Source of the DNA: Leisingera aquaemixtae
Lineage (GTDB): Bacteria; Pseudomonadota; Alphaproteobacteria; Rhodobacterales; Rhodobacteraceae
Direction of reading: 5' to 3'
Length of the DNA: 64,000 bases
Assembly: GCF_001458395.1 (NCBI RefSeq)
Contig: NZ_CYSR01000002.1
Location: 248,001 to 312,000, forward strand
Positions 6,182 through 16,390 of the stretch are shown one piece after another; positions within the stretch are counted from its first letter, which is position 1, and each line of letters begins with the position of its first letter. Position numbers and translations under genes: made by a program. A model generated the notes under the pieces. The model ran no database searches. It saw only the letters and a list, made by a program, of their open reading frames with translations, and was not told the DNA's origin.

Positions 6182-6820
6182 TTACGGTTTCCAGGTCAGG
6201 AAATTGCCGATCATCCGCAGGCCCGTCGCCTGGCTTTTCTCAGGGTGGAACTGCATGCCCACCATCGTGTCACGCCCGATAACAGCGGTCACGTCGCCGG
6301 CATAATCCACATGCGCCAGCCGTTCCGCCGGGTTGGCGACGCGGAAATGGTAGGAATGCACGAAATACACGTGGTCGCCGCTCTCGATCCCGTCAAACAC
6401 CGGGTGTGCCTGGTCGATCACTAGATCGTTCCAGCCCATATGCGGCACTTTCAGGGCGGGGTCCGCCGGCGTGATCTTCACCACATCGCCGCCAACCCAG
6501 CCGAGGCCCGGCGTCTCGGTGTATTCATGCCCTGTGGTTGCCATCAGCTGCATGCCGACACAGATGCCCAGGAAGGGGCGGCCCTTTTGCTCAACCGCTT
6601 CGACCATGGCGTCATAAATGCCCTTGTGGCCGCGCAGCTCTGCCGCGCAGGCGGGAAAGGCGCCGTCGCCGGGCAGCACCAGCCGGTCAGCGCGGGCCAC
6701 CACATCGGCGTCAGAAGTTACCACAACTTCACCCGCATCCATTTCCCGCGCCATGCGCTGGAACGCCTTCTCGGCGGAGTGCAGGTTGCCGGATTCGTAG
6801 TCGATGATTGCGGTCAGCAT
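6182..6820 (-). CDS. hisH: Imidazole glycerol phosphate synthase, glutamine amidotransferase subunit
   Basis: HisH is the class I glutaminase that feeds ammonia to HisF. The 212-residue protein starts MLTAIIDYESGNLHSAEKAF, has the nucleophilic Cys in FLGICVGMQLM and the His/Glu pair in VGMQFHPEKSQ. The ATG at 6820 is one base after the end of hisB, so the two are translationally linked. The open frame upstream of 6820 is antisense noise inside hisB. Confidence 0.97.
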   Translation of the reverse strand: MLTAIIDYESGNLHSAEKAFQRMAREMDAGEVVVTSDADVVARADRLVLPGDGAFPACAAELRGHKGIYDAMVEAVEQKGRPFLGICVGMQLMATTGHEYTETPGLGWVGGDVVKITPADPALKVPHMGWNDLVIDQAHPVFDGIESGDHVYFVHSYHFRVANPAERLAHVDYAGDVTAVIGRDTMVGMQFHPEKSQATGLRMIGNFLTWKP

Positions 6821-6821
6821 G

Positions 6822-7409
6822 TCAAAGCGCGCCCTTGGTCGAGGGAATCGCATCCGCCTTGCGCGGGTCGGTCTCCACCGCCAGCCGCAACGCGCGGGCG
6901 GCCGCCTTGAACGCCGCCTCGGCGATATGGTGGCTGTTGAACCCGTGCAGCTGGTCGATGTGCAGGGTGATGCCGCCATGGGTGCTCAAGGCTTGAAAGA
7001 ACTCCCGCACCAGTTCGGTGTCGAATGTGCCGATCTTCTGGGTTGGCAGTTCCAGGTTCCAGATCAGGAAGGGGCGTGCCGACAGGTCCAGCGCGCAGCG
7101 CACCTGGGCGTCATCCATCGGCAGGTGGCACTCGCCGTAGCGGCGGATGCCCTTCTTGTCCCCCAGCGCCTGCACCAGCGCCTGACCCAGCGCGATGCCG
7201 GTGTCCTCCACCGTGTGGTGGTCGTCGATGTGGTAATCGCCCTTGGCGCGGATGGTCATGTCGATCAGCGAATGGCGCGCCAACTGGTCCAGCATGTGGT
7301 CGAAAAAGCCGACGCCGGTCTGGTTGTCATAAACCCCGGTGCCGTCGAGGTTGATCTCAACCGAAATCTCGGTTTCCGCGGTCTTGCGGGTCACTTTGGC
7401 GGTACGCAT
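6822..7409 (-). CDS. hisB: Imidazoleglycerol-phosphate dehydratase
   Basis: HisB dehydrates IGP to imidazole acetol phosphate. The 195-residue monofunctional form shows the duplicated manganese-binding motifs: [13 protein letters not shown] with [12 protein letters not shown], and [15 protein letters not shown]-type (here [11 protein letters not shown]). Two ATGs are in frame; the one at 7409 ([13 protein letters not shown]) is preferred because GAAGGA lies 10 bases before it, while the ATG at 7430 has no Shine-Dalgarno. It heads a hisB-hisH operon. Confidence 0.96.
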
Positions 7410-7927: not shown

Positions 7928-9280
7928 TCAGGCGGCAATCAGCCCCTTGTCCTGCAGTTCTGCATAGGCGGTATCGACGGCGGCTTTCATCCGGGCCAGC
8001 ATGTCGTCCACTTCCGCCTTGGTGATGATCAGCGGCGGGCACAGCGCCAGCGCATTGCCGGCCACCGCCCGCAGGATCAGCCCGTTGTCCTGGCAGGCTT
8101 TCTGCGCAGCCGCACCCGCGGCACCCTTGTCAAAGCTCGCGCCGGTGGTCTTGTTCGACACCAGCTCCAGCGCCGCAATCAGCCCCTTGCCGCGCACCTC
8201 GCCCACCAGCGGGTGACCGGTGAAGATCTCGCGCAGCTGCGCCTGCATATAGGCGCCCACCTCGGCGGCATGCTCGAACAGGTTGTCGCGCTCGTAGATT
8301 TCCAGCGTCTTCAGCGCCGCCGCACAGGCCGCCGGGTGGCCGGAGTAGGTGTAGCCGTGGCCGAACACGCCAACCTCATTGGTCTGCGCGATCATCGCCT
8401 CATACATCCAGCCGGGAATGACCGAGGCCGAGATCGGGAAATAGGCCGAGCTCAGCTGCTTGGCAAAAGTCATCAGGTCCGGCTTGATGCCCATGGTGGT
8501 GCAGCCAAAGTCCGCACCGGTGCGCCCGAAGCCGCAGATCACCTCATCGGCCCAGACCAGGATGCCATGCTTGCGCAGCACTGCCTGCAGCTTCTCGTAA
8601 TAGCCCTCCGGCGGCACGATCACGCCGGAGGCTCCGGTGATCGGCTCCACGATCATCGCGGCGATGGTGTCGGGGTCTTCCGCCAGGATCTGCTCTTCCA
8701 GGTTATTGATGATCCGGTCGACAAACTGCTCCTCGGTCTCATTGCCCCGGCGGCCGGTGTAATAATGCGGCGCGTCCGAGCGCAGGATGTGCAGCGCCTC
8801 CAGCGGCGCATCGAAATGCGCCAGATTCGCGGGCAGGGAGGTCAACGAGCCGGCAGCAACGGTCACCCCGTGATAACCGCGCTCGCGGGTGATGATCTTG
8901 CGCTTCTCCGGCTTGCCGATGGCGTTGAAGTAGTAGCGCAGCATTTTGTAGTGGGTGTCATTGGCGTCCGAGCCGGAGTTGCCGAAGAAGATATAGGCAT
9001 CCTCCACCGGCACCATCGCCTTCAGTTTTTCGGCCAGTTCCATGATCGGCTTGTGCGTCTTGCCGCCAAAGGTGTGGGTGAACGGCAGCTTGTGCAGCTG
9101 CTCGGTGATCGCGTCCATCACCTCGGTATTGCTGTAGCCCAGCGAGGTGCACCACAGGCCGGCCAGGCCTTCGATGTATTTGTTGCCGTCCGTATCATAG
9201 ACATAAATGCCTTCGCCGCGGTCCAGGCAAAGCTGTTCGGTCGCGGTGAAATTGGTAGTGGGATAGATGACTGGGGCCAT
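7928..9280 (-). CDS. Class III PLP-dependent aminotransferase
   Basis: The 450-residue cytoplasmic enzyme is a fold-type I omega-aminotransferase. FFGNSGSDANDTHYKMLRYY is the PLP phosphate region, VWADEVICGFGRTG holds the Asp that contacts the pyridine N, and LMTFAKQLSSAYFPIS carries the Schiff-base Lys near residue 274. Relatives move amino groups from putrescine, beta-alanine, taurine or similar amines to pyruvate; the substrate cannot be fixed from sequence. The ATG at 9280 follows AGGAG by 8 bases; the frame running further upstream crosses two tRNA genes and is not coding. Two palindromes upstream suggest control by a repressor. Confidence 0.9.
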   Translation of the reverse strand: MAPVIYPTTNFTATEQLCLDRGEGIYVYDTDGNKYIEGLAGLWCTSLGYSNTEVMDAITEQLHKLPFTHTFGGKTHKPIMELAEKLKAMVPVEDAYIFFGNSGSDANDTHYKMLRYYFNAIGKPEKRKIITRERGYHGVTVAAGSLTSLPANLAHFDAPLEALHILRSDAPHYYTGRRGNETEEQFVDRIINNLEEQILAEDPDTIAAMIVEPITGASGVIVPPEGYYEKLQAVLRKHGILVWADEVICGFGRTGADFGCTTMGIKPDLMTFAKQLSSAYFPISASVIPGWMYEAMIAQTNEVGVFGHGYTYSGHPAACAAALKTLEIYERDNLFEHAAEVGAYMQAQLREIFTGHPLVGEVRGKGLIAALELVSNKTTGASFDKGAAGAAAQKACQDNGLILRAVAGNALALCPPLIITKAEVDDMLARMKAAVDTAYAELQDKGLIAA

Positions 9281-9432: not shown

Positions 9433-9507
9433 TGGAGCGGGCGATGAGATTCGAACTCACGACCCTTACCTTGGCAAGGTAATGCTCTACCCCTGAGCTA
9501 CGCCCGC
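9433..9507 (-). tRNA. tRNA-Gly (GCC), copy 1
   Basis: The minus strand reads GCGGGCGTAGCTCAGGGG at the 5' end, a TTGCCAA anticodon loop (anticodon GCC), a GGTCGTGAGTTCGAATCTC T-arm region and CGCCCGCTCCA at the 3' end, so the CCA is encoded. The acceptor stem GCGGGCG/CGCCCGC pairs perfectly. Length with CCA is 75. Copies 2 and 3 carry the same gene sequence. Confidence 0.97.
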
Positions 9508-9651: not shown

Positions 9652-9726
9652 TGGAGCGGGCGATGAGATTCGAACTCACGACCCTTACCTTGGCAAGGTA
9701 ATGCTCTACCCCTGAGCTACGCCCGC
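9652..9726 (-). tRNA. tRNA-Gly (GCC), copy 2
   Basis: It is identical to copy 1 over the 75 bases, including the GCC anticodon and encoded CCA. About 20-30 bases beyond the 5' end are also conserved with copies 1 and 3 (GCTGCCAT-x-x-GGTGA), so the duplication included the promoter side. This copy borders the restriction-modification cassette. Confidence 0.97.
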
Positions 9727-9816
9727 GCTGCCATTCGGTGAGGCGGTGTTTAGGGATTTCCAAAACGGGCCGCAAGAGGAAATTTGAAAAACCGCGCAAG
9801 TATCTGTGGATAAGCG

Positions 9817-10230
9817 TTATTCTCCGGTTCTGAGGAAATCCGCGAGGCGATTTTTCAGGGCTTCAAGGTCCTTGGTTTCGCATTCCCAGACTGTCAGCAC
9901 CTGCCAGCCTGCCGCCTGCAAAGCCGCCGCGTGCTCCGCGTCGCGTTCGGCATTGCGCAACAGTTTCGGCTCCCAGTAATCGCGGCGGGAGGCGGGAATG
10001 CGCCCGTCGCGGCAGTCATGCAGATGCCAGAAGCAGCCATGCACAAAGATCACCTTGCGGCGCGGCCCGAACACCAGGTCGGGCTTGCCGGGCAGGTCCT
10101 TGCGGTGCAGCCGGTAGCGGATCCCCATCCCGTGCACCATCCGCCGCACCAGCAGTTCCGGCTTGGTATGCTTGGTGCGGATCTTCGCCATATTGGCGCT
10201 GCGCCGTTCGGGTGTCAGCTTGTCGGCCAT
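9817..10230 (-). CDS. vsr: Very short patch repair endonuclease
   Basis: Vsr nicks 5' of the T in T:G mismatches made when 5-methylcytosine deaminates in a methylase target. The 137-residue protein has the family core: RSANMAKIRTKHTKPELLVRR, GKPDLVFGPRRKVIFVHGCFWHLHDC and RDYWEPKLLRN. Asp51, His64 and His69 fall at the positions of catalytic Asp51 and His69 of E. coli Vsr, and the FW intercalating pair is present. It overlaps the 3' end of the NaeI-like gene by 16 bases, so it is probably translated from the same message. Confidence 0.96.
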   Translation of the reverse strand: MADKLTPERRSANMAKIRTKHTKPELLVRRMVHGMGIRYRLHRKDLPGKPDLVFGPRRKVIFVHGCFWHLHDCRDGRIPASRRDYWEPKLLRNAERDAEHAAALQAAGWQVLTVWECETKDLEALKNRLADFLRTGE

Positions 10231-11117
10231 TTCACGGCATGTCCGGATTGTGCGGCCATGCGGGAATGATACTCGTTTTCGATCCGGCAGGAAATGAACT
10301 CGCCGCCGGCACAGGGCGGCAGATCCAGCGCCTTGATCAGCTGGCTGTCGTACTGGCCCGACAGCAGCAGGATGCCGTCCCGGGCCAGCAGGTCCCGCGT
10401 GCCGCGCCCCTTGTCCGAGCGGATCCGGCGCATGAAGTCCTTCTGCTGCGCCACCGCCTCCACCACATCGCGCGGAACCGGGCGGCGCTGGATCAGCCGG
10501 AACAGCTGCGCCATGCGCTCATTTCCGGTGTCGCCCGCAAAGATCTGCTGGACTGCCGCCTCATCCGCGGTGCGCCAGAAGTTGGCGGGGTAGGGTTGAT
10601 CCTTGAACAGCCACAGGATATGGCGGAAGCCCTCGGCAGAGATGCTGCGCTTGGCGTCCTTATTCTGGCCGTGAGTCAGGTATGCGGGCCGGGCGACGAT
10701 CAGGCCCAGGTAACAGCGCGCCCGCACCTCATCGGCGGCGACCAGCAGGCAGGTGCAATCAATTGCCTCGGTCGGGATCATCCAGTTGCCGCCCATCGTG
10801 TGCTTGATGTCGACATCCTGGCCCAGGATCTCGGTATCCAGCCGCCCCTTGCGCAAGCGCAAGAGCGCCCTCAGTTCGATCTCCACCCGGGTGCCGATAT
10901 AGGTCTTCTCGGTTTTCTCCAGCTCTTCATACGCGCGCCGTCCGGTCTTGGGCGTCATGATCACATCGTCAATGCACTGGCGCAGCCTCTGCGGCACGTC
11001 ATGTTCCAGCGCCAGCGCGCCGCCGGCACGGGTCGTGATCTCCTCTGCCAGCGGGGAGAGGGTGCCGAAATCCGGATGGCCGGGACACACAAGGCTGTCG
11101 GGAAGTTTCAGTTTCAT
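10215..11117 (-). CDS. NaeI-type type II restriction endonuclease
   Basis: The 300-residue protein resembles NaeI, the type IIE endonuclease for GCCGGC. The segment TYIGTRVEIELRALLRL, then LDTEILGQDVDIKHT and GNWMIPTEA, provides an Endo-domain active site: Asp94, Asp103 and Lys105 have the same 9- and 2-residue spacing as NaeI Asp86/Asp95/Lys97, with a Glu (79 or 81) in place of Glu70. The C-terminal half would be the second DNA-binding (Topo) domain. The start is ATG at 11117 after a GGTGG; a GTG at 11129 is also in frame. It lies between the C5 methyltransferase and vsr. Specificity is inferred from homology. Confidence 0.85.
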   Translation of the reverse strand: MKLKLPDSLVCPGHPDFGTLSPLAEEITTRAGGALALEHDVPQRLRQCIDDVIMTPKTGRRAYEELEKTEKTYIGTRVEIELRALLRLRKGRLDTEILGQDVDIKHTMGGNWMIPTEAIDCTCLLVAADEVRARCYLGLIVARPAYLTHGQNKDAKRSISAEGFRHILWLFKDQPYPANFWRTADEAAVQQIFAGDTGNERMAQLFRLIQRRPVPRDVVEAVAQQKDFMRRIRSDKGRGTRDLLARDGILLLSGQYDSQLIKALDLPPCAGGEFISCRIENEYHSRMAAQSGHAVKWPTS

Positions 11118-11130
11118 ATCGTGTTCCACC

Positions 11131-11184
11131 CGGCGGTACGCCGGGCAGCGCCCGGCCCGCCCCCCACGGGGCGGGCGCTGCCCT
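11131..11184. repeat. REP-like palindromic element, copy A
   Basis: CGGCGGTACGCCGGGCAGCG, CCCGGCCCGCC and CCCACGGGGCGGGCGCTGCCC form nested inverted repeats with the outer stem GGGCAGCGC/GCGCTGCCC. It matches copy B at about 33796-33880. It fills the gap between the methyltransferase and endonuclease genes and could cap the methylase transcript. Confidence 0.65.
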
Positions 11185-11209
11185 CAGGTCTATAATCGCT
11201 TTGGTGCCT

Positions 11210-12169
11210 TCACGCCCGCACGGCATGAAGCTTCGGCTTGGCAATTGCCGCCCTCAGCTCCCGCGCCACCGCCTCGGCCACCGGCGGCGGGAAGGCATTG
11301 CCGACCTGGCGGTAGGCGTTGGTCTTGGCGCCGGTGAAATGCCAGGCATCCGGGAACCCCTGAATGCGCGCCACCATCCGCACCGTCAGGCGCGGCATGT
11401 CGTTGTGGAACGGGTCCGGCGCCTCATTGGCGATGGTACGCCCCTCAACCCCCAGCGCCGCCCAGGCGCGCCGCGCGCGGGTCGGACCCAAATCGGGACC
11501 GCCGTGTTTCTTGGAGCCGCCCACAATCGTTGGCGCAATCTCATCGGCCTTGGCGGCCCAGTCTTCTGCCCCGCGCCAGCCGCGTTCCTTCATCAGGTCG
11601 ATCAGGGTCGCGCCCACGGTCGGCGGATTGTGCGGCAGCGGCTCGGGCCAGTTGAACTGGCCGGAAAACTCCTTGCGCAGCGCAACAATCGCCACCCGCG
11701 GCCGCAGCTGCGGCACCCCGAAATCGGAGGCATTCAGCAGCCGCCAGTCGGTCTCATACCCCAGCTTCGACAGCTGCTTCTTCAGCTTCTCGCGGTAGTC
11801 ATGGAACACCGCATCCAGAAAGCCGCGCACGTTCTCGATCATCACGGCGCGGGGGCGGGTCGCGTCGACGATCTCGATCGCATCGTCGAACAGGTTGCGC
11901 TCGTCCTTCTCGCCCAGCTGTTTGCCCGCCACCGAAAACGGCGGGCAGGGCAGGCCGCCTGCCAAGAGGTCGATGCCCTTGTAGTCGCCCGCAACCTCCT
12001 TGAACTTGCGCACGTCCTCTTCCAGCACGTTCCACGCCGGGCGGTTGTGGCGCAGGGTGGCGCAGCAATGCTTGTCGATCTCAACCAGCGCGGTGTGATC
12101 AAAGCCCGCCGCCTCGAGACCGAGGGCCTGGCCGCCCGCACCTGCGCATAGTTCTACCGATGTTAGCAT
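11210..12169 (-). CDS. DNA (cytosine-5-)-methyltransferase, probably GCCGGC-specific
   Basis: The 319-residue enzyme has the ordered C5-methyltransferase motifs: motif I LCAGAGGQALGLEAAGF (AdoMet), motif IV GGLPCPPFSVAGKQ with catalytic Cys75, motif VI MIENVRGF, motif VIII PQLRPRVAIVAL and motifs IX-X RMVARIQGFPD...AYRQVGNAFPPPVAEAV. The target-recognition region (about 190-260) is short. Specificity for GCCGGC is inferred from the adjacent NaeI-like endonuclease, and the Vsr gene confirms m5C chemistry. The ATG at 12169 begins MLTSVELC; the longer frame to 12244 would cross the promoter. It is first in the cassette and likely regulated through the operator-rich promoter at 12192-12232. Confidence 0.95.
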   Translation of the reverse strand: MLTSVELCAGAGGQALGLEAAGFDHTALVEIDKHCCATLRHNRPAWNVLEEDVRKFKEVAGDYKGIDLLAGGLPCPPFSVAGKQLGEKDERNLFDDAIEIVDATRPRAVMIENVRGFLDAVFHDYREKLKKQLSKLGYETDWRLLNASDFGVPQLRPRVAIVALRKEFSGQFNWPEPLPHNPPTVGATLIDLMKERGWRGAEDWAAKADEIAPTIVGGSKKHGGPDLGPTRARRAWAALGVEGRTIANEAPDPFHNDMPRLTVRMVARIQGFPDAWHFTGAKTNAYRQVGNAFPPPVAEAVARELRAAIAKPKLHAVRA

Positions 12170-12191
12170 TCTGCTCTGCCCGCCCGTTTCT

Positions 12192-12206
12192 GTTCTTGCT
12201 CTGTTC
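12192..12206. promoter_or_regulatory. LexA-type SOS box at the methyltransferase promoter
   Basis: GTTC-ttgctct-GTTC matches the alphaproteobacterial LexA consensus GTTC-N7-GTTC exactly. It is centred about 30 bases before the methyltransferase ATG and overlaps the predicted -10 region. It resembles the box before uvrD (GAACagagtgtGAAC versus GAACagagcaaGAAC on the minus strand). Confidence 0.55.
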
Positions 12207-12232
12207 CTATGCGGAATCGTGATTCCGCACAA
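12204..12232 (-). promoter_or_regulatory. Predicted promoter of the R-M cassette with a palindromic operator in the spacer
   Basis: On the minus strand TTGTGC (12227-12232) and TAGGAA (12204-12209) are 17 bases apart. The perfect palindrome TGCGGAATC-N2-GATTCCGCA (12210-12229) fills the spacer, and a related half site TGCGGAAATC lies at 12257-12266. The layout is that of a repressor or controller-protein operator, but no controller gene is in the cassette. Confidence 0.55.
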
Positions 12233-12276
12233 GGTTTTCTGCACCCGGGCAGACTATGCGGAAATCCTCAAAAGCG

Positions 12277-12301
12277 AAAGGCCGCCCCGGAGGGCGGCCT
12301 G
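12277..12301 (-). terminator. Terminator of tRNA-Gly copy 3
   Basis: GGCCGCCC / GGGCGGCC stem, followed on the minus strand by TTTCGCTTTT. Confidence 0.75.
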
Positions 12302-12313
12302 TCCGTTTCCCGA

Positions 12314-12388
12314 TGGAGCGGGCGATGAGATTCGAACTCACGACCCTTACCTTGGCAAGGTAATGCTCTACCCCTGAGCTACGCCCGC
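12314..12388 (-). tRNA. tRNA-Gly (GCC), copy 3
   Basis: The 75-base sequence is identical to copies 1 and 2, again with encoded CCA. It lies on the other side of the restriction-modification cassette, so the cassette is bracketed by two identical tRNA genes in direct orientation 2.66 kb apart. Confidence 0.97.
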
Positions 12389-12946: not shown

Positions 12947-15900
12947 TTATTCCAGCTCGATCAGCAGATCCTTGGCGTCGATCTGGCCGCCGGCCTGAAC
13001 ATGCACCGCCTTCACCACCGCGTCGCGCTCGGCGTGAATGCCGGTCTCCATCTTCATCGCTTCGATGGTCAGCAGCATATCGCCCTCGTGCACCTGCTGG
13101 CCCACCTGCACCGCGACAGAGGCGACAACACCCGGCATCGGCGCGCCGACGTGGTTCGGGTTGCCGGCCTGTGCCTTCGGACGCGCTTCGGTCGAGGCCT
13201 TGACCAGGCGGTTCGGCACCCGGATCACGCGGGGCTGGCCGTTGAGTTCAAAGAAGACCTTCACCTCGCCCTTCTCGTCGGTCTCGGAGATTGCCTGCAG
13301 GCGGATCTCCAGCGTCTTGCCCGGGTCGATCTCGGCAGTGATCTCTTCACCCGGCTCCATGCCATAGAAGAAGGTGCGGGTCGGCAGGGTGCGCACCGGG
13401 CCGTACTGGCGGTGGCGGCCCATGTAGTCCAGGAACACCTTGGGATACATCAGGTAGCCGTTCAGGTCCTCGTCATCGACACTGAAACCTTCCAGCTCCT
13501 TCGACAGTTCGGCACGAACCGCTTCCAGATCCACCGGCTCCAGATGCGCGCCCGGGCGTTCGGTGTTCGGCGCTTCGCCTTTCAGCACCTTGCTGACGAT
13601 GCCTTCCGGGAAGCCGCCCGGAGGCTGGCCCAGGTTGCCGCGCATCATGTCGATAACCGAGTCGGGGAAGGCCACGTCGGTTTTCGGGTCCTCGACCTGT
13701 GTGCGGGTCAGGCCCTGGCTCACCATCATCAGCGCCATATCGCCAACCACCTTGGACGACGGCGTCACCTTCACGATATCGCCGAACATCTGGTTCACGT
13801 CCGCATAGGTCTGCGCCACATCGGCCCATTTCTCTTCCAGCCCCAGGGAGCGCGCCTGCGCCTTCAGGTTGGTGAACTGGCCGCCCGGCATCTCGTGCAG
13901 GTAGACTTCCGAGGCGGGGGCCTGCAGGCCGCTCTCAAACGCCGCATACTGCGCCCGCACCTGCTCCCAGTAGCCGGAGATCTCGCGCACCTTGGCGATG
14001 TCGATGCCGGTGTCGCGGTCGGTGTTGCGCAGCGCCTCGACGATGGAGCCCAGGCAGGGCTGCGAGGTGCCGCCGGAGAAGGCGTCCATGGCCGCATCCA
14101 CCGCATCCACACCGGCATCCGCCGCCGCCAGGATGGTGGCCCCGGCCACGCCGGAGGTGTCATGGGTGTGGAAGTGGACCGGCAGGCCGACCTCTTCCTT
14201 CAGCGCCTTGACCAGCTGGCGGGCGGCGGCGGGCTTCAACAGGCCTGCCATGTCCTTCAGGCCCAGGATGTGGGCGCCGGCCGCTTCCAGCTCCTTCGCC
14301 ATGCCGACGTAATACTTGAGGTCGTACTTGGCGCGGTTCGGGTCCAGGATATCGCCGGTATAGCAGATGGTGCCTTCGCAGACCTTGCCGCTCTCGACCA
14401 CCGCATCCATGGCGACGCGCATGTTCTCGACCCAGTTCAGCGAGTCGAAGACACGGAACACGTCGACGCCGGTCTTCGCCGCCTGGCGCACGAACTCCTG
14501 CACCACGTTGTCCGGATAGTTGGTGTAGCCGACGCCGTTGGAGGCGCGCAGCAGCATCTGGGTCATCAGGTTCGGCATCCGTTCGCGCAGGTCGCGCAGG
14601 CGCTGCCAGGGGCATTCCTGCAGGAAGCGGTAGGCCACGTCAAAGGTCGCACCGCCCCAGCACTCGACAGAGAACAGCTGGCTCAGGTTCTGGGCATAGG
14701 CCGGTGCCACCTTGATCATGTCGATCGAGCGCATCCGGGTCGCCAGCAGCGACTGGTGGCCGTCGCGCATGGTGGTGTCGGTCAGGAGCAGCTGCGGCTG
14801 CGCCTTCATCCAGTCGGCCACCGCCTGCGCGCCCTTTTCCTCCAGCAGGTTGCGGGTGCCCTTGGGCAGGCCGCCCGGCTCGACCCGCGGCGCGCGCGGC
14901 TCTTTCAGGTCGGCGGCGGGGGCCGGACGGCCTTCGGTCTCCGGATGGCCATTCACGGTGATGTCCGCGATATAGGTCAGCACCTTGGTGCCGCGGTCGC
15001 GGCGTTTCTTGAACTGGAACAGCTCCGGCGTCTCGTCGATGAATTTAGTGGTGTATTGATTCGACAGGAAGGTCGGGTGTTTCAGCAGGTTCTCGACAAA
15101 GGCGATGTTGGTGCTGACGCCGCGCACCCGGAACTCGCGCAGGGCGCGGTCCATGCGGGCAATCGCCTTCTCGGGCGTCGGCGCCCAGGCAGTCACCTTG
15201 GTCAAGAGCGAGTCGTAATAGCGGGTGATCACGCCGCCCGCGTATGCGGTGCCGCCGTCCAGGCGGATGCCCATGCCGGTGGCGGAGCGGTAGGCGGTGA
15301 TGCGGCCGTAGTCCGGGATGAAGTTGTTCAGCGGATCCTCGGTGGTCACCCGGGTCTGCAGCGCGTGGCCATTGAGGCGGATATCGTCCTGCGACGCCTT
15401 GCCGGTGGCTTCCGCAATGCTCTTGCCCTCAGCGATCAGGATCTGCGCTTGCACGATGTCGATGCCGGTGACCTCTTCGGTCACGGTATGCTCCACCTGC
15501 ACCCGCGGGTTCACTTCGATGAAGTAGAACTTGCCGTCGTTCATATCCATCAGGAATTCGACGGTGCCCGCGCATTCATAGTTCACATGTTGGCAGATCC
15601 TGCGGCCCAGGTCGCAGATCTCGGCGCGCTGCTCTTCGGTCAAATAGGGGGCAGGCGCGCGCTCGACCACTTTCTGGTTGCGGCGCTGGACCGAGCAGTC
15701 GCGCTCGTAAAGGTGATAGATGTTGCCGTCCTTGTCGCCCAGGATCTGCACCTCGACGTGGCGGGCGCGGGTGATCATCTTTTCCAGATACCCTTCACCG
15801 TTGCCAAAGGCGGCTTCCGCCTCGCGGCGGCCTTCCAGCACCTTTTCTTCCAGTTCCTTCTCGGCGTGGATCGGGCGCATGCCGCGGCCGCCGCCGCCCC

Positions 15901-16390
15901 AGGAGGCCTTCAGCATCAGCGGATAGCCGATCTCGGCCGCTTCCTTGCGGATCGCGTCCATGTCGTCGCCCAGCACTTCGGTCGCCGGGATGACCGGCAC
16001 GCCGGCCTCGATCGCCACCTTGCGGGCCGAGGCCTTGTCGCCCAGGGCGCGCATGGTTTCCGCCTTGGGGCCGATGAAGGTGATGCCGTTGCGGGCGCAG
16101 GCGTCCACGAAATCCGGGTTCTCGGACAAGAGGCCGTAGCCGGGGTGAATCGCATCGGCACCGCATTCCTTGGCGACGCGGATGATCTCGTCGATCGACA
16201 GATAGGCCGCAACCGGCCCCATGCCTTCGCCGATCCGGTAGGCTTCGTCCGCCTTGAACCGGTGCAGGCCGAGTTTGTCCTCCTCGGCATAGACGGCGAC
16301 GGTGCGCTTGCCCATCTCGTTGGCGGCGCGCATCACGCGGATCGCGATCTCGCCACGGTTGGCAATCAGGATCTTTTTGAAGTCGGTCAT
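12947..16390 (-). CDS. pyc: Pyruvate carboxylase
   Basis: This 1147-residue biotin enzyme carboxylates pyruvate to oxaloacetate to replenish the TCA cycle. Domains in order: biotin carboxylase/ATP-grasp (about 1-460: ILIANRGEIAIRVMRA, SWGGGGRGMRPI, FIEVNPRVQVEHTVTE); carboxyltransferase TIM barrel (about 540-810: LLTDTTMRDGHQSLLATRMR, VFDSLNWVENM, HFHTHDTSG); a PYC/OADA linker domain; and the biotinyl domain with EAMKMETGI, biotin Lys near 1113. Length fits the single-chain alpha4 form. It is monocistronic, with a terminator downstream. Confidence 0.98.
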   Translation of the reverse strand: MTDFKKILIANRGEIAIRVMRAANEMGKRTVAVYAEEDKLGLHRFKADEAYRIGEGMGPVAAYLSIDEIIRVAKECGADAIHPGYGLLSENPDFVDACARNGITFIGPKAETMRALGDKASARKVAIEAGVPVIPATEVLGDDMDAIRKEAAEIGYPLMLKASWGGGGRGMRPIHAEKELEEKVLEGRREAEAAFGNGEGYLEKMITRARHVEVQILGDKDGNIYHLYERDCSVQRRNQKVVERAPAPYLTEEQRAEICDLGRRICQHVNYECAGTVEFLMDMNDGKFYFIEVNPRVQVEHTVTEEVTGIDIVQAQILIAEGKSIAEATGKASQDDIRLNGHALQTRVTTEDPLNNFIPDYGRITAYRSATGMGIRLDGGTAYAGGVITRYYDSLLTKVTAWAPTPEKAIARMDRALREFRVRGVSTNIAFVENLLKHPTFLSNQYTTKFIDETPELFQFKKRRDRGTKVLTYIADITVNGHPETEGRPAPAADLKEPRAPRVEPGGLPKGTRNLLEEKGAQAVADWMKAQPQLLLTDTTMRDGHQSLLATRMRSIDMIKVAPAYAQNLSQLFSVECWGGATFDVAYRFLQECPWQRLRDLRERMPNLMTQMLLRASNGVGYTNYPDNVVQEFVRQAAKTGVDVFRVFDSLNWVENMRVAMDAVVESGKVCEGTICYTGDILDPNRAKYDLKYYVGMAKELEAAGAHILGLKDMAGLLKPAAARQLVKALKEEVGLPVHFHTHDTSGVAGATILAAADAGVDAVDAAMDAFSGGTSQPCLGSIVEALRNTDRDTGIDIAKVREISGYWEQVRAQYAAFESGLQAPASEVYLHEMPGGQFTNLKAQARSLGLEEKWADVAQTYADVNQMFGDIVKVTPSSKVVGDMALMMVSQGLTRTQVEDPKTDVAFPDSVIDMMRGNLGQPPGGFPEGIVSKVLKGEAPNTERPGAHLEPVDLEAVRAELSKELEGFSVDDEDLNGYLMYPKVFLDYMGRHRQYGPVRTLPTRTFFYGMEPGEEITAEIDPGKTLEIRLQAISETDEKGEVKVFFELNGQPRVIRVPNRLVKASTEARPKAQAGNPNHVGAPMPGVVASVAVQVGQQVHEGDMLLTIEAMKMETGIHAERDAVVKAVHVQAGGQIDAKDLLIELE

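What the first reader, a model, noticed from the sequence alone, without database searches (positions are those of the whole stretch)
9652..12388. NaeI-type R-M-Vsr cassette inserted between two identical tRNA-Gly genes
A C5 methyltransferase, a NaeI-like endonuclease and Vsr, all on one strand, fill exactly the gap between tRNA-Gly copies 2 and 3, and a third identical tRNA-Gly lies 150 bases away. Directly repeated tRNA genes on both sides allow gain or loss of the whole cassette by homologous recombination without harming tRNA function. No integrase is present, so the repeats themselves may be the mobility mechanism.
Basis: partly seen in the sequence, partly recalled or inferred. Interest (0 to 1): 0.7.

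Follow-up and report, generated by a model that had tools for sequence, protein, structure and literature searches.

The report
Restriction genes with likely SOS switch
A DNA-cutting and DNA-marking defence operon of marine Leisingera-type bacteria, lodged in a row of glycine-tRNA genes, looks like a long-settled part of the genus rather than a recent mobile insert, and its promoter carries what looks like the binding site of the DNA-damage repressor LexA, which suggests that restriction here is wired to the cell's damage response.

Summary
In detail: MTase, NaeI-type endonuclease and Vsr genes lie on the minus strand between two identical tRNA-Gly(GCC) genes, with a third 144 bases on; these are the genome's only full copies. 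The mobility reading is partly supported. The cassette sits at this site in 21 of 21 genus genomes and, without Vsr, in 7 of 7 of a neighbouring genus, with synonymous divergence similar to or somewhat above its neighbours: old, mainly vertical. In 53 of 61 cassette-free pyc loci 1-3 tRNA-Gly already stand there. Yet tRNA-Gly repeats at this site do recombine: another cargo plus one tRNA-Gly is precisely present or absent among five genomes of a related genus. Elsewhere the cassette often lies 3' of other tRNA genes. Main new point: the MTase upstream region carries GAAC-N7-GAAC, the alphaproteobacterial LexA operator, also found upstream of this genome's lexA and recA. It is exact in 78 of 80 loci and 50 of 51 non-redundant regions, against at most 2 of 51 for other spacings. 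SOS control is inferred; binding and induction are untested.

The parts
12314..12388 (-). tRNA-Gly(GCC) copy 3 (pyc side)
   Evidence: ARAGORN; identical to copies 1 and 2
12279..12300 (-). terminator-like hairpin behind tRNA copy 3, between the tRNA and the MTase
   Evidence: consensus scan only; 8 found in the region against a mean of 4.3 in shuffles
12228..12233 (-). -35-like CTTGTG of the MTase promoter
   Evidence: CTTG at this distance from the box is the consensus (at least 60% of rows) over the 50 box-bearing of 51 non-redundant loci; coordinates; promoter itself inferred
12204..12209 (-). -10-like TAGGAA overlapping the LexA-type box
   Evidence: inferred
12192..12206 (-). LexA-type operator GAACAGAGCAAGAAC (GAAC-N7-GAAC)
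   Evidence: same motif upstream of own lexA and recA
11210..12169 (-). C5-cytosine DNA methyltransferase (319 aa), first gene of the presumed operon
   Evidence: PF00145, TIGR00675; dN/dS 0.028 in the genus
11143..11183 (-). strong hairpin between MTase and NaeI genes
   Evidence: z -2.5 for the 131-nt stretch; its conservation was not tested
10215..11117 (-). NaeI-family type II restriction endonuclease (300 aa)
   Evidence: PF09126; aligned to solved NaeI 1ev7, E 2.2e-30
9817..10230 (-). Vsr mismatch endonuclease (137 aa), overlaps NaeI by 16 nt
   Evidence: PF03852/TIGR00632; Vsr structure 1cw0, E 9.5e-30
9652..9726 (-). tRNA-Gly(GCC) copy 2
9433..9507 (-). tRNA-Gly(GCC) copy 1 (aminotransferase side)
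12947..16390 (-). pyruvate carboxylase (pyc), flank used as anchor for the site
   Evidence: NF009554/TIGR01235; orthologues
7928..9280 (-). class-III aminotransferase, other flank of the site
   Evidence: PF00202, NF004767; orthologues

Best explanation
This is an old, mainly vertically inherited type II restriction-modification operon (MTase, NaeI-type endonuclease, later Vsr) that entered an already existing tandem array of tRNA-Gly(GCC) genes before Leisingera, Phaeobacter and related genera split, and is now a core locus of the genus. It is probably transcribed from its own promoter, not from the tRNA: a terminator-like hairpin separates them, and a conserved CTTG...TAAGAAC promoter-like element lies upstream of the MTase with a LexA operator (GAAC-N7-GAAC) over its -10. 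I infer that LexA holds the operon down in healthy cells and that DNA damage, including cuts by NaeI itself when methylation falls behind, raises it, the MTase first. The tRNA repeats do recombine (in-step change of copies, and presence/absence of another cargo in a related genus), but the R-M cassette is retained, most simply because cells that lose the MTase are cut by leftover endonuclease. Shown: place, conservation, operator sequence, repeat recombination. Inferred: promoter, LexA binding, induction, GCCGGC specificity, retention by addiction.
For: Same place and order in the genus (21 of 21 with NaeI; 20 loci and the window) and in 7 of 7 of a neighbouring genus. Median dS MTase 0.49, NaeI 0.55, Vsr 0.51 against pyc 0.40 and aminotransferase 0.42; dN/dS 0.028, 0.18, 0.16. 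One supported 37-row clade of MTases (98/90), all at the pyc tRNA-Gly site. It is the top pattern among all 4+4 gapped words; the other 11 listed are parts of the same element. It lies upstream of own lexA and recA and of an imuB-like and a radical-SAM gene. A Caulobacter paper states GTTC(N7)GTTC as the LexA consensus (PMC12907096, passages).
Against: No expression, footprint or methylation data. GAAC-N7-GAAC occurs four times in this window against 1.17 expected (5 of 100 shuffles reach 4), so a single site means little; the weight is on conservation. Of the 29 GAAC-N7-GAACA sites of the genome I tied five to a gene (this MTase, lexA, recA, imuB-like, radical SAM); the others were not assigned. 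The box lies 21-40 bp from the MTase start in the flanked clade but about 70-77 bp in most others, so its place relative to the start is not uniform, and a second promoter downstream of the box is possible in the latter. The consensus sigma-70 scan found no promoter. GCCGGC is not specially depleted in genus DNA (0.69 of expectation; six GC palindromes 0.48-0.85); it is lower in other NaeI-bearing loci (0.48) than in NaeI-free pyc loci (0.74).
Confidence: 0.66

Rival explanations
1. One reading: the cassette is a mobile unit that is gained and lost by recombination between the flanking tRNA-Gly genes.
For: Exactly this kind of event is seen with another cargo at the orthologous site in a related genus; tRNA copies around the cassette differ in step between clades; the minimal unit is just two or three genes.
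Against: Cassette present in 21 of 21 genus genomes and 7 of 7 of a neighbouring genus; dS similar to neighbours; array older than the cassette. Only one genome per species was examined, so loss within species could be missed.
Confidence: 0.2
2. Long-past integrase-borne insertion: an element that used tRNA 3' ends brought the cassette in several times and later lost its integrase and att repeats.
For: The cassette is found 3' of seven tRNA kinds; where a tRNA lies within 900 bp upstream in the 80 loci it is on the same strand, with the MTase end towards it; tRNA 3' ends are classical integration sites (established knowledge).
Against: Outside the tRNA-flanked clade no exact repeat of the tRNA 3' part longer than 11 nt within 6 kb downstream; none of 17 neighbouring ORFs in ten non-pyc loci matched an integrase (6 of the 17 had no Pfam match).
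Confidence: 0.35
3. The conserved GAAC-N7-GAAC is the operator of some other regulator, or a promoter feature, not of LexA.
For: LexA binding was not tested; the first GAAC overlaps the -10-like element, so part of the conservation could be promoter sequence.
Against: The second GAAC at exactly 7 bp is as conserved as the first (other spacings at most 2 of 51), and the same motif lies upstream of own lexA and recA. No regulator gene is in the cassette.
Confidence: 0.1
4. Cassette genes are expressed by read-through from the tRNA promoter, which is why they so often follow tRNA genes.
For: Same-strand position behind a tRNA gene within 450 bp in 60 of 80 loci, against 39 of 1223 other ORFs in the same loci.
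Against: A terminator-like hairpin stands between tRNA and MTase here, a conserved promoter-like element with the box follows, and 14 of the 16 loci without a tRNA within 900 bp keep an exact box.
Confidence: 0.08

Closest known systems
NaeI restriction-modification (type IIE, GCCGGC; properties recalled)
   Same: C5 MTase beside a NaeI-family endonuclease; PF09126 match over cut-off; the residues aligned with E70, D86, D95, K97 of NaeI are E, D, D, K (alignment; which residues are catalytic is recalled)
   Different: Distant from NaeI itself (108.6 bits); recognition site untested; here with Vsr and a conserved LexA-type operator
ScmA and VsrA of Caulobacter crescentus (PMC12907096; abstract, introduction, one results section, part 1 of the discussion and passages seen)
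   Same: Alphaproteobacterial C5 MTase for YGCCGGCR with a Vsr-like partner; loss of methylation triggers SOS; a GTTC(N7)GTTC LexA site lies inside vsrA
   Different: ScmA is solitary, not linked to vsrA or an endonuclease; no LexA box for scmA is mentioned in the parts seen; sequence kinship to our MTase was not tested
E. coli dcm-vsr
   Same: C5 MTase with Vsr in one operon (stated in PMC12907096, introduction)
   Different: No endonuclease in that operon; no LexA operator known to me (recalled)
SOS-regulated toxin-antitoxin genes such as symE (PMC3874152, passages)
   Same: LexA site overlapping the promoter of an addiction-type module
   Different: Here the toxin is a type II endonuclease that could itself cause the SOS signal
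R-M insertion with long target duplication (Nobusato et al. 2000, not seen itself; cited in PMC3031569 and PMC3874152, passages)
   Same: R-M genes flanked by direct repeats of the order of 100 bp
   Different: Here the repeats are tRNA genes that stood there before the cassette, not a duplication made by insertion

Membership tests
Type II restriction-modification system | adjacent genes for a DNA MTase and an endonuclease | tested here: met
   MTase before NaeI on the same strand in 80 of 80 genome-contig loci
NaeI family | NaeI domain over the curated cut-off and conserved active-site residues | tested here: met
   205.6 bits against cut-off 25; E, D, D, K aligned (residues recalled)
NaeI family | recognises and cuts GCC^GGC, type IIE two-site activity | not testable with these tools
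   needs enzyme or methylome data; composition gives no clear sign
Vsr mismatch endonuclease | Vsr subfamily model over cut-off | tested here: met
   TIGR00632 157 bits against 97.85
LexA (SOS) regulon of Alphaproteobacteria | GAAC-N7-GAAC operator near the promoter, conserved among relatives | tested here: met
LexA (SOS) regulon of Alphaproteobacteria | LexA binding and induction by DNA damage | not testable with these tools
   no binding or expression data available here
Integrative element in a tRNA gene | integrase and repeat of the tRNA 3' end at the far side | tested here: not met
   no PF00589 match in the window; no attR-like repeat outside the tRNA-flanked clade; inside that clade the repeats are whole tRNA genes
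Insertion with long target duplication | flanking repeat created by the insertion, single copy at the empty site | tested here: not met
   cassette-free pyc loci: 23 with one, 21 with two, 9 with three, 8 with no tRNA-Gly in the stretch; G051 has 3 without a cassette
Recently mobile cassette | patchy presence among close relatives | tested here: not met
   21 of 21 in the genus; patchy at family level, 23 of 394 genomes

The most novel reading that the evidence does not exclude
The operon is a self-correcting addiction circuit: when methylation falls behind, NaeI (or Vsr) nicks or cuts the chromosome, RecA is activated, LexA is cleaved, and the MTase at the head of the operon is derepressed before further damage, a built-in counterpart for type II systems of the restriction alleviation known for type I enzymes. 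The same circuit lets the cassette survive between recombining tRNA repeats and move as a naked two- or three-gene unit from one tRNA 3' flank to another, possibly in DNA packets such as gene transfer agents.
Probability: 0.3. Interest if true: 0.78.

Novelty: new variant of a known kind. Interest (0 to 1): 0.6.

Why it matters
Regulation of type II R-M systems is usually explained by C proteins, MTase autoregulation or antisense RNA (recalled). A LexA operator kept across dozens of R-M loci in many genera would make DNA damage an input to restriction, directly testable in culturable Leisingera or Phaeobacter. It would also link two facts known apart: loss of methylation triggers SOS, and SOS controls addiction modules. 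The tRNA-Gly array is a natural experiment in how a cassette between recombining repeats escapes deletion.

Tried and rejected
Recent mobility of the cassette in the genus: rejected by 21 of 21 presence and neighbour-like dS. Flanking tRNA made by the insertion: rejected, most cassette-free relatives have the array. att-type repeats: none found outside the tRNA-flanked clade. Site avoidance as a sign of activity: GCCGGC not informative. Other RNA genes at 16 loci without a near tRNA: Rfam gave only tRNAs farther off and one FMN riboswitch. Vehicle: no NaeI relative in 50,697 phage records at E 1e-10; 2 of 72,556 plasmids at E 1e-20, both under 50% identity, one of them (Loktanella) with an annotated cytosine MTase under the match. 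Remnants in the G051 site: no MTase or NaeI match even at E 1. Read-through from the tRNA promoter: set aside because of the terminator-like hairpin and the conserved promoter-like element. Literature: LexA was sought together with R-M, alphaproteobacterial or Rhodobacter terms (R-M with tRNA or NaeI in 22, 70; Leisingera in 63; target duplication in 23). No title or abstract start in those listings named a LexA-controlled type II R-M operon, but only four papers were opened, in parts (PMC12907096, PMC6473078, PMC3031569, PMC3874152), and subscription journals are missing. The sigma-70 scan found no promoter; the promoter claim rests on cross-locus conservation. Not done: structure prediction, viral-contig scans, a Vsr tree, a test of kinship to ScmA, conservation of the MTase-NaeI hairpin.
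Full report
Observation. Three tRNA-Gly(GCC) genes lie on the minus strand at 9433-9507, 9652-9726 and 12314-12388. They are identical over 75 nt within a repeated unit of about 196 nt. A C5 MTase, a NaeI-family endonuclease and Vsr fill the space between copies 2 and 3. These are the only full copies of this tRNA gene in the 4.6-Mb assembly; a fourth hit covers 27 nt only. The window holds no PF00589 integrase match. The flanks are pyruvate carboxylase and a class-III aminotransferase, with hisB farther on.

Is it mobile? A search of the 21 genomes held of the genus found NaeI in 21 of 21. In the 20 loci fetched, pyc, tRNA-Gly, MTase and NaeI come in this order in all 20. Right of NaeI, 18 have two tRNA-Gly and the aminotransferase, L059 ends with its contig after one tRNA, and L052 (contig of a Bugula symbiont) is rearranged. 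Vsr is full length in 19 of 21, window included; G008 lacks it and G009 keeps a piece. Median dS over 171 pairs is 0.40 for pyc (C-terminal part), 0.42 for the aminotransferase, 0.49 for MTase, 0.55 for NaeI and 0.51 for Vsr (the last over its own 19 sequences). dN/dS is 0.096, 0.076, 0.028, 0.18 and 0.16 in that order. The MTase is thus the most constrained of the five genes, and the cassette has about the age of its neighbours. Its dS is a little higher than theirs, and NaeI dS correlates only weakly with pyc dS (0.32), so exchange of alleles among species is not excluded.

Wider survey. In the family, 23 of 394 genomes (394 genomes, 393 genera) have NaeI at E 1e-10 and 42 of 394 an MTase at E 1e-90. 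All 7 genomes held of the genus of G152 have MTase-NaeI at the site. Of 101 pyc loci placed on a tree (one genome, G087, twice), 40 have the cassette at the site and 61 do not; of the 61, 23 have one, 21 two, 9 three and 8 no tRNA-Gly in the stretch scored. That pyc tree is weak (7 of 97 inner branches starred). The array is therefore older than the cassette.

Repeat recombination. In the genus of G051, 0 of 5 genomes have the cassette at the site. Three carry [cargo ORF + third tRNA-Gly] and two lack exactly that unit; the junction tRNA joins the upstream flank of copy 2 to the downstream flank of copy 3. Around the R-M cassette, tRNA copies on the two sides are identical in 33 of 35 loci while differing between clades; in L119 one of three copies is of the other type. 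Strong selection on tRNA could add to this identity.

Other tRNA sites. A scan of named species contigs with a 15-row NaeI alignment gave 80 loci (99 matched, the best 80 kept). In 60 of 80 the MTase starts within 450 bp of a same-strand tRNA 3' end. Of the 25 loci with neither pyc nor hisB in the stretch, 14 have a same-strand tRNA within 900 bp upstream (10 within 450 bp) and 11 do not; none of the 25 has a tRNA within 900 bp downstream of NaeI, and in none of the 80 does one lie within 900 bp upstream on the opposite strand. In all, 16 of 80 have no tRNA within 900 bp upstream. The kinds are Gly-GCC, Gly-CCC, Thr-TGT, Thr-CGT, Thr-GGT, Arg-TCT and, in the family genomes L080 and L221, Asn-GTT. 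Other ORFs of the same loci: 39 of 1223 (raised by the aminotransferase behind tRNA-Gly). More distant MTases (70% identity or less): 0 of 15 within 450 bp, two at 0.66 and 0.82 kb. The MTase tree of 86 rows needs 23 changes of site label (shuffled mean 34.7); strongly supported branches alone force at least 4 changes of the pyc-site label. So the link to tRNA genes is strong but not absolute; no att-like repeats and no integrase were found beside the loci tested.

The LexA-type operator. GAAC-N7-GAAC within 200 bp upstream of the MTase is exact in 78 of 80 loci (one mismatch in L165; in L162 the start I used is displaced or truncated); control genes NaeI 0 of 79, pyc 3 of 45, aminotransferase 0 of 32, hisB 0 of 10. 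In 51 non-redundant upstream regions (L162 dropped before) it is found in 50, the top pattern of all 4+4 gapped words with gaps of 0-15; the other 11 listed are parts of the same element. Other spacings give at most 2 of 51, and 500 shuffles a mean of 0.19 and a maximum of 2. It is exact in 5 of 5 family MTases at 71% identity or more without a close NaeI, and in 0 of 15 at 70% or less. A consensus CTTG lies so that a 17-bp spacer leads to a -10-like element that overlaps the first GAAC. In the window: -35 12228-12233, -10 12204-12209, box 12192-12206, ATG 12169.

Why LexA. The Caulobacter paper PMC12907096 (passages) gives GTTC(N7)GTTC as the LexA consensus, and PMC6473078 (passages) sorts Dinoroseobacter LexA sites into GTTC and GAAC motifs. 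In this genome the word lies about 40 bp upstream of lexA and about 100 bp upstream of the RecA domain match, and upstream of an imuB-like and a radical-SAM gene. GAAC-N7-GAACA occurs 29 times against 8 for the reversed control; most of the 29 I did not assign to genes.

How it probably works. Low LexA-held expression keeps the genome methylated; under-methylation leads to NaeI cuts, RecA activation, LexA cleavage and more MTase. That R-M imbalance or loss induces SOS is in print for E. coli (PMC3031569 and PMC3874152, passages), and that loss of YGCCGGCR methylation induces SOS through a Vsr-like enzyme is in print for Caulobacter (PMC12907096). The feedback itself is my inference. NaeI follows in the same presumed operon, so SOS might raise both; a hairpin between them could damp NaeI, untested.

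Verdict. Observation confirmed; mobility reading partly supported; the main new element is the conserved LexA-type operator of an R-M operon. I file it as a new variant of a known kind.

Noticed in passing
L081, L250, L252 (present) against L249, L251 (absent): In the genus of G051 a small ORF of about 170 aa plus one tRNA-Gly is precisely present or absent at the orthologous site, with a hybrid tRNA junction: recombination between tRNA repeats caught in nature.
   Followed up: yes
L101 / L052: In the Bugula neritina symbiont contig the right end of the cassette is rearranged: only 40 aa of Vsr match and a 17-nt piece of tRNA-Gly remains, and the aminotransferase was not found in the stretch.
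   Followed up: partly
L076 (NaeI) and L221 (MTase): The NaeI of G462 and the MTase of G293 each carry an in-frame stop, so some copies seem to be decaying; the MTase of the bin contig L123 is split between two frames.
   Followed up: no
L176 and L180: Two alphaproteobacterial bins far from Leisingera carry the three-gene form with Vsr overlapping NaeI, at tRNA-Thr(GGT); Vsr may have been gained or lost more than once.
   Followed up: no
L178, just after tRNA-Arg(TCT) at 6757-6833: About 11 nt from the tRNA 3' end are repeated directly behind it, as an old integration scar might look.
   Followed up: no
window 11143-11183: A GC-rich hairpin (12 + 5 pairs) between MTase and NaeI could act on the relative output of the two genes.
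   Followed up: partly
L106: A contig labelled Nocardioides marinus is clearly from this Leisingera-type genus (pyc 95%, MTase 96%): probably a mislabelled record.
   Followed up: no
L171:9642-10310: An SRAP (SOS-associated peptidase) gene lies about 0.75 kb downstream of the cassette in this genome.
   Followed up: no
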